Assembly (NCBI GenBank): GCA_019119495.1 | Contig: DWWX01000003.1 | Coordinates: forward strand, 1 to 64,000 | From: Candidatus Gemmiger stercorigallinarum | Lineage (GTDB): Bacteria; Bacillota; Clostridia; Oscillospirales; Ruminococcaceae | Length of the DNA stretch: 64,000 nt | Reading direction: 5' to 3' | Shown here: positions 23,013 to 23,912 of the stretch, piece after piece | Layout: the number at the start of each line of letters is the position of its first letter | Numbering within the stretch: the first letter of the stretch is position 1 | Notes under the pieces: model-generated | Told to the model about the DNA's origin: nothing | Seen by the model: the letters and a program-made list of their open reading frames with translations, nothing else | Database searches by the model: none | Program-made: the position numbers and the translations under genes

Positions 23013-23334
23013 CCCCGCCCCCGACCGCCGCGCCAAATACCCCGGCAAAAACGGCGCAAAGCCCCAAGAACCATAACAGCAAAGTCCGCCCGCGGGCCCC
23101 TGCCGGATGGCAGCCCGCGGGCGGACTTTGCGCGGTTTCGGGCAGAAAAAGCGCAAGGCGTTTTCAGCCGCCGGCCCGGCTTTCCGCCTCCTCCCACTTC
23201 TCAAAAACGATCCAGTTCCCATCGAAATTTACATACAGTTTGCCCGGCTCCCCGAGCAGGTAGTCATATCCCGCGCCAAAGTTGGATTCGCCGTCCTTTG
23301 CGGGCCATTCCCAGCTTTCCACAGACGCTGCGAC

Positions 23335-23356
23335 GGCGCCGTCGGGGACGGCGTCC
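23335..23356. repeat. Direct repeat copy 1 flanking the element (candidate target-site duplication)
   Basis: GGCGCCGTCGGGGACGGCGTCC; same as 23588-23609 except one base. Confidence 0.85.
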
Positions 23357-23587
23357 CAGCGTGTCGAGTCCCTCGACACGCTGCAAAGAGGGCAACGCTT
23401 CGACTGGCTGACGCCAGCTCGGCGCGTTTCCCCCTTTGGAATCCCCTTCGACAAAATTTTACGGCAAATCGCGCACTCGGAGCACAGCTCCTCGCACACA
23501 ATTTGCCGCAAAATTTCCCTGTAGGTGTCGCCGTCGTCGGCGCATGTCCGCCGACGGCGACGGAGTTTAACTTTTTCGACAATCTGT
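23357..23587. mobile_element. MITE-like 231-bp non-coding element made of chained hairpins
   Basis: Imperfect terminal inverted repeats CAGCGTGTCGA / CAGATTGTCGA (9/11); internal stems 23357-23383 (12 bp), 23454-23469 with 23501-23516 (15/16 bp), and GTCGCCGTC..GACGGCGAC near 23525-23565; direct repeats on both sides. Confidence 0.75.
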
Positions 23588-23609
23588 GGCGCCGTCGGGG
23601 ACAGCGTCC
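23588..23609. repeat. Direct repeat copy 2 flanking the element
   Basis: GGCGCCGTCGGGGACAGCGTCC. Confidence 0.85.
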
Positions 23610-23912
23610 GCTTGGATGCCGCCGTGCCGCTGCCCGGTGCTGGCGTAGGTCACCCCGTCCACGACCACAGCCGGCCGCATCGCCCAGCGGGCAGCATCGG
23701 GGGCGGGTGCGGGAGCAAGCCGGCCTGCCAGCAGAAGCAGCGCCAGGGCAAGCCCGGTCAGCAGCAACGCGCCTTTCATGTTGATCCGCCGCCTTTCTTT
23801 GCCGTCTTTGCAAATAAAGAAGGAAAAATATGCAAAAGGTTACGGCGCCGCGGCACCTGGCAAAATTCCGCCCCGTCCGCAAGGAAATAGCAGCCAACCC
23901 CCGCCGCTGCTA

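What the first reader, a model, noticed from the sequence alone, without database searches (positions are those of the whole stretch)
23335..23609. MITE-like element cleanly interrupting a secreted-protein gene
Two near-identical 22-bp direct repeats (GGCGCCGTCGGGGAC[G/A]GCGTCC at 23335 and 23588) bracket 231 bp with imperfect inverted ends (CAGCGTGTCGA / CAGATTGTCGA). Removing 253 bp (one repeat plus the element) fuses ...QADAVPDGA to VAASVESW... and gives a continuous 120-aa minus-strand ORF with a signal-like N-terminus. That is the expected footprint of a non-autonomous insertion with a long target duplication, in a window with no transposase gene.
Basis: partly seen in the sequence, partly recalled or inferred. 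Interest (0 to 1): 0.75.

Follow-up and report, generated by a model that had tools for sequence, protein, structure and literature searches.

The report
Mini-transposon that targets DNA hairpins
A 230-bp non-autonomous transposon of Gemmiger bacteria, carrying the ends of an IS1182-family insertion sequence, jumped into a hairpin-forming stretch of a small gene and duplicated the whole hairpin; its relatives do the same elsewhere, so the duplication is as long as the hairpin that was hit.

Summary
(1) The element is multicopy: about 25 full or partial copies in this genome and matches in 26 of 34 other genomes of the genus (Gemmiger). (2) A congener has the empty allele: one 22-mer, no element, an intact 120-aa ORF, flanks 95-97% identical; empty sites were found for three more copies. 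The "22-bp TSD" is not a fixed length. It is the complete stem-loop that was hit: in 33 of 54 MITE copies the duplication (14-41 bp) is centred on a hairpin, mostly terminator-like (controls: 2 of 2000 sites). The autonomous partner is very probably a clade of IS1182-family DDE transposases with the same CAGNNTGTCGA ends and the same whole-stem-loop duplication (11 of 13 insertions). The staphylococcal relative IS1272 also targets stem-loops but deletes or replaces them; whole-loop duplication had only been drawn as a hypothetical branch in the papers held. The interior is four hairpins with strong covariation but few G-T intermediates, which fits DNA palindromes better than a plus-strand RNA.

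The parts
23357..23586 (+). MITE, 230 bp, type I subfamily
   Evidence: about 25 full or partial copies in own genome, matches in 26 of 34 congeners; absent from the orthologous locus of G030
23335..23356 (.). left copy of the duplicated target stem-loop (22 bp)
   Evidence: differs from the empty allele by one base that makes the stem perfect
23588..23609 (.). right copy of the duplicated target stem-loop (22 bp), identical to the empty allele
23357..23383 (.). left terminal hairpin, CAGCGTGTCGAG NNN CTCGACACGCTG (left end plus its inverse)
   Evidence: (I6), helix 1
23385..23437 (.). internal hairpin 2
   Evidence: helix 2, 7 of 15 pairs with two-sided changes
23454..23516 (.). internal hairpin 3
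   Evidence: helices 4-6
23526..23562 (.). internal hairpin 4
   Evidence: helix 7, 6 of 15 pairs with two-sided changes
23572..23586 (.). right end TTTTTCGACAATCTG, matching ends of IS1182-family elements (TTTTTCGACAGNCTG)
23610..23779 (-). 5' part of the broken 120-aa host gene (starts at 23779; frame continues into the right 22-mer)
23164..23334 (-). 3' part of the broken host gene

Best explanation
The 230-bp stretch is a MITE mobilised in trans by a DDE transposase of one IS1182-family clade. The transposase recognises the CAGNNTGTCGA ends of the element and, in the target, a stem-loop (probably an extruded cruciform) rather than a sequence. [quoted passage not shown] gap repair then copies the whole stem-loop on both sides, so the duplication is as long as the hairpin. 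Here the hairpin lies inside a small gene, which the insertion breaks; most other copies sit in terminator-like hairpins. Shown: multicopy mobility, empty sites, hairpin targets, hairpin-sized duplications, and the same ends and duplication habit in IS1182 elements. Inferred: that this transposase moves this MITE, the cruciform intermediate, and the strand chemistry.
For: Copies in 27 of 35 genomes of the genus. Empty alleles at four loci. Whole-stem-loop duplication of 14-41 bp in 33 of 54 MITE copies against 2 of 2000 control sites; hairpin and duplication share a centre within about 1 nt in 40 of 43 cases. CAG-ended IS1182 elements show the same duplication in 11 of 13 insertions; five copies of one IS in one genome have duplications of 20, 21, 22, 26 and 30 bp, each the target hairpin. 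CAG-ended transposases form one clade (97/95), including copies in the genus. A cruciform model with exactly this outcome as one branch was drawn for IS1272 (PMC5678879).
Against: No IS1182 transposase was found in the source assembly or in several MITE-rich congeners, although these are incomplete draft assemblies. 21 of 54 MITE copies lack a recognisable duplication. No biochemistry; the cruciform is inferred.
Confidence: 0.85

Rival explanations
1. A MITE mobilised by another, unseen transposase family that happens to share the ends.
For: No IS1182 transposase in G000 or in several MITE-rich congeners.
Against: The match covers both the ends and the very unusual whole-stem-loop duplication, and an IS1182 element with such an end is present in congener G010.
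Confidence: 0.06
2. The transposase makes an ordinary fixed staggered cut anywhere, and copies survive mainly in terminators because those sites are harmless (selection, not targeting).
For: Most copies lie in intergenic terminator-like hairpins.
Against: Duplication length varies from 14 to 41 bp, matches the hairpin and is centred on it, also for identical copies of one IS; a fixed cut cannot give that. The window copy sits in a hairpin inside a gene.
Confidence: 0.03
3. The element encodes a conserved structured RNA that is the selected unit (for example a guide or a retroelement RNA), and mobility is secondary.
For: Strong base-pair covariation in four hairpins; a subfamily with a different sequence keeps the layout.
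Against: G-T cells (8) are fewer than A-C cells (20) on the plus strand; no Rfam match; DNA-type ends shared with IS1182. A minus-strand RNA is not excluded.
Confidence: 0.06

Closest known systems
IS1182 family, CAG-ended clade found here in the order (e.g. L174, L204, L205, L213, L225)
   Different: The IS carry a DDE transposase of about 480 aa; the MITE has no transposase gene and has an interior of hairpins.
IS1272 / TnSha1 (IS1182 family, Staphylococcus; PMC5678879, PMC4923244)
   Same: Targets stem-loops regardless of sequence, often terminators.
   Different: IS1272 and TnSha1 delete or replace the stem-loop and give no duplication; here the stem-loop is kept and duplicated.
Typical bacterial MITEs
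   Same: Short, no transposase gene, inverted ends, flanking duplications, multicopy.
   Different: Duplications usually have a fixed short length (established knowledge); here they are set by the target hairpin.

Membership tests
MITE | Short, without a transposase gene | tested here: met
   230 bp; no ORF of transposase size
MITE | Multicopy and dispersed, with empty alleles | tested here: met
MITE | Terminal inverted repeats and target duplication | tested here: met
   imperfect 11-bp ends; duplication in 33 of 54 copies
MITE | Ends shared with an autonomous element | tested here: met
   IS1182 clade
IS1182-derived MITE | Partner transposase of the IS1182 family | tested here: met
   NF033551 above cut-off for L174, L204, L213 and others; Pfam DDE_Tnp_1_6 and DUF772 in L174
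IS1182-derived MITE | Autonomous copy in the same genome | tested here: inconclusive
   none in the 86.6% complete assembly; partial copies in congener G010
IS1182-derived MITE | Transposase acts on the MITE | not testable with these tools
   needs a transposition assay
IS1272-type stem-loop replacement | Target stem-loop lost, no duplication | tested here: not met
   stem-loop present on both sides and single at empty sites

The most novel reading that the evidence does not exclude
A clade of IS1182-family transposases acts on an extruded four-way junction (cruciform), cutting at the 5' foot of both hairpins whatever their length, so that target duplication is set by target structure and not by transposase geometry. 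The palindromes inside its MITEs would be kept perfect by arm-to-arm correction at the DNA level, which gives covariation without an RNA.
Probability: 0.5. Interest if true: 0.65.

Novelty: new variant of a known kind. Interest (0 to 1): 0.5.

Why it matters
A target duplication whose length follows the target hairpin makes structure-directed (cruciform) transposition testable from sequence and simple assays, and supplies natural examples of a branch that was only drawn as a hypothesis for IS1272. Because terminator hairpins are doubled rather than destroyed, such elements can probably spread through intergenic regions at little cost. The covariation also warns that base-pair covariation in a repeat need not mean a structured RNA.

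Tried and rejected
Rfam search: only chance-level hits. Search for kb-sized elements with the MITE's own left-end hairpin: none, only about 220-470 bp versions. L177 (G005) first looked like an IS with a matching end, but that end belongs to a MITE-like end beside an IS of another IS1182 subgroup. A first tree used wrong frames for minus-strand loci and was redone. The empty-site search gave no clean junction for copy L006, and L008's two flanks lay on different contigs. Literature searches found no description of this MITE and none of whole-stem-loop duplication as an observed IS1182 outcome in the held papers; the main IS reviews are not held, and the ISfinder entry for IS1182 (from memory: duplications of widely varying length) could not be read here, so part of this may already be on record. 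The window was not searched exhaustively for other transposases.

Full report
Observation. The two 22-mers at 23335 and 23588 match at 21 of 22 positions and are the only such sequences in the window. Comparison with other copies sets the element at 23357-23586 (230 bp), with one extra T at 23587 that is either untemplated or a changed base of a 23-bp duplication. The left 27 bp form a perfect hairpin of the terminal sequence with its own inverse.

Mobility. The element has about 25 full or partial copies in the 2.06-Mb source genome, several at contig ends as expected for an assembly-breaking repeat. Of 61 genomes searched, 27 have matches, all of one genus; none of the 26 other genera has one. 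A sample of 120 family genomes adds only two weak partial matches outside the genus. A scan of named genomes puts it in Gemmiger, with a few records labelled Anaerofilum, Faecalibacterium or uncultured Oscillospiraceae.

Empty sites. In congener G030 the same gene is uninterrupted: flanks 97% and 95% identical, one 22-mer, no element, and an intact 120-aa ORF (L196:1309-1671). Copies L005 and L003 also have empty sites in G030, and L002 has one in the more distant G011. The 22-mer of the empty site equals the right copy; the left copy carries one change that makes the stem perfect.

Target and duplication. In copy after copy the duplicated sequence is an entire stem-loop, often with the A and T tracts of a terminator, for example 25 bp in L003, 34 bp in L094, 36 bp in L127 and 41 bp in L132. 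Of 54 non-redundant MITE insertions with both flanks, 33 have a duplication of 14-41 bp, against 2 of 2000 random control sites. With the IS1182 copies included, duplication length follows hairpin span (Spearman 0.61, n = 43), and duplication and hairpin share a centre within about 1 nt in 40 of 43 cases. Of the copies without a duplication, thirteen keep a strong hairpin on one side, two have unlike hairpins on both sides, and six have none; later deletion or recombination between copies would explain this, but it was not shown. In L151, L088 and the IS copy L174 the loop is inverted between the two copies, a known habit of palindromes.

Autonomous partner. IS1182-family transposases (NF033551) in the same order include elements of about 1.5 kb with ends CAGNNTGTCRAA...TTYGACANNCTG, very close to the MITE right end. 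They too are flanked by a duplicated whole stem-loop: 10 of 12 and one more, L203 (28 bp). Six copies in genome G237 with equal scores and lengths are the cleanest case: five have duplications of 20, 21, 22, 26 and 30 bp, each the target hairpin. In a tree of 27 transposases the CAG-ended ones are one clade (97/95), including two partial copies in the Gemmiger genome G010. IS1182 relatives outside that clade have other ends and showed no stem-loop duplication; one, L209, appears to have duplicated only a 7-bp loop. No IS1182 transposase was found in the source assembly, which is 86.6% complete.

Mechanism. Wan et al. 2017 (PMC5678879) showed that IS1272 replaces target stem-loops, and drew a cruciform model in which attack at the 5' feet would duplicate the whole stem-loop (pathway b) and attack at the loop would duplicate the loop (pathway c). 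Furi et al. 2016 (PMC4923244) reported hairpin targeting with deletion for TnSha1, and cite a review saying that some IS1182 members target palindromes. The elements here behave as pathway b predicts. The strand chemistry and the cruciform are inferred, not shown.

Interior. Thirty copies support four hairpins: 98% of cells paired, 20 of 63 pairs with compensatory changes on both sides, no shuffle of 500 as high, and slid controls far lower. A second subfamily of 221 bp keeps the same layout with different sequence. Among departures from the commonest pair, two-sided changes dominate (70 cells), while G-T cells (8) are fewer than A-C cells (20) on the plus strand. That does not look like an RNA read from that strand. 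Maintenance of DNA palindromes, by selection or by one arm correcting the other, fits better, and the perfected 22-mer at 23335 is one direct example. A minus-strand RNA is not excluded, and the cells are not independent.

Verdict. A real MITE with an unusually complete case: empty sites, a likely mobilising clade and a structural target rule. The kind is known; the hairpin-sized duplication as the standard outcome of an IS1182 clade is, as far as the held literature shows, a new variant.

Noticed in passing
L007, L015, L018, L022, L167; in inverted orientation in L075, L145, L063: A module of about 65 bp made of hairpins (CTGCGCCCGCAGGCGC...GGCCGGAGAT) sits in the loop of the MITE's hairpin 4, in both orientations and in two subfamilies; it may be a second small mobile element.
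   Followed up: partly
L009, L012, L013, L014, L017, L167: A module of about 100-150 bp (GTCCGGGTTGCGGTGCCC...GGCTCCGCAG) interrupts MITE copies between hairpins 2 and 3; several contigs end in it.
   Followed up: no
L062, L117, L142, L160 (about 256-bp elements); L085, L147 (about 396 bp): Further subfamilies share the 27-bp left-end hairpin and the right end but have quite different interiors, also hairpin-rich and flanked by duplicated stem-loops.
   Followed up: partly
L209 (G205): An IS1182 element with GCGCTGTTGACAAA ends lies between the two arms of a hairpin with a 7-bp direct repeat of the loop (CAAAATG), as the loop-duplication branch of the IS1272 model would predict.
   Followed up: no
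L151, L088, L174: The loop of the duplicated hairpin is inverted between the two flanking copies.
   Followed up: no
L031, L032, L080, L082, L124, L125, L166, L173 and others: When only one flank of a MITE copy keeps a hairpin it is more often the left one (10 left, 3 right); unexplained.
   Followed up: no
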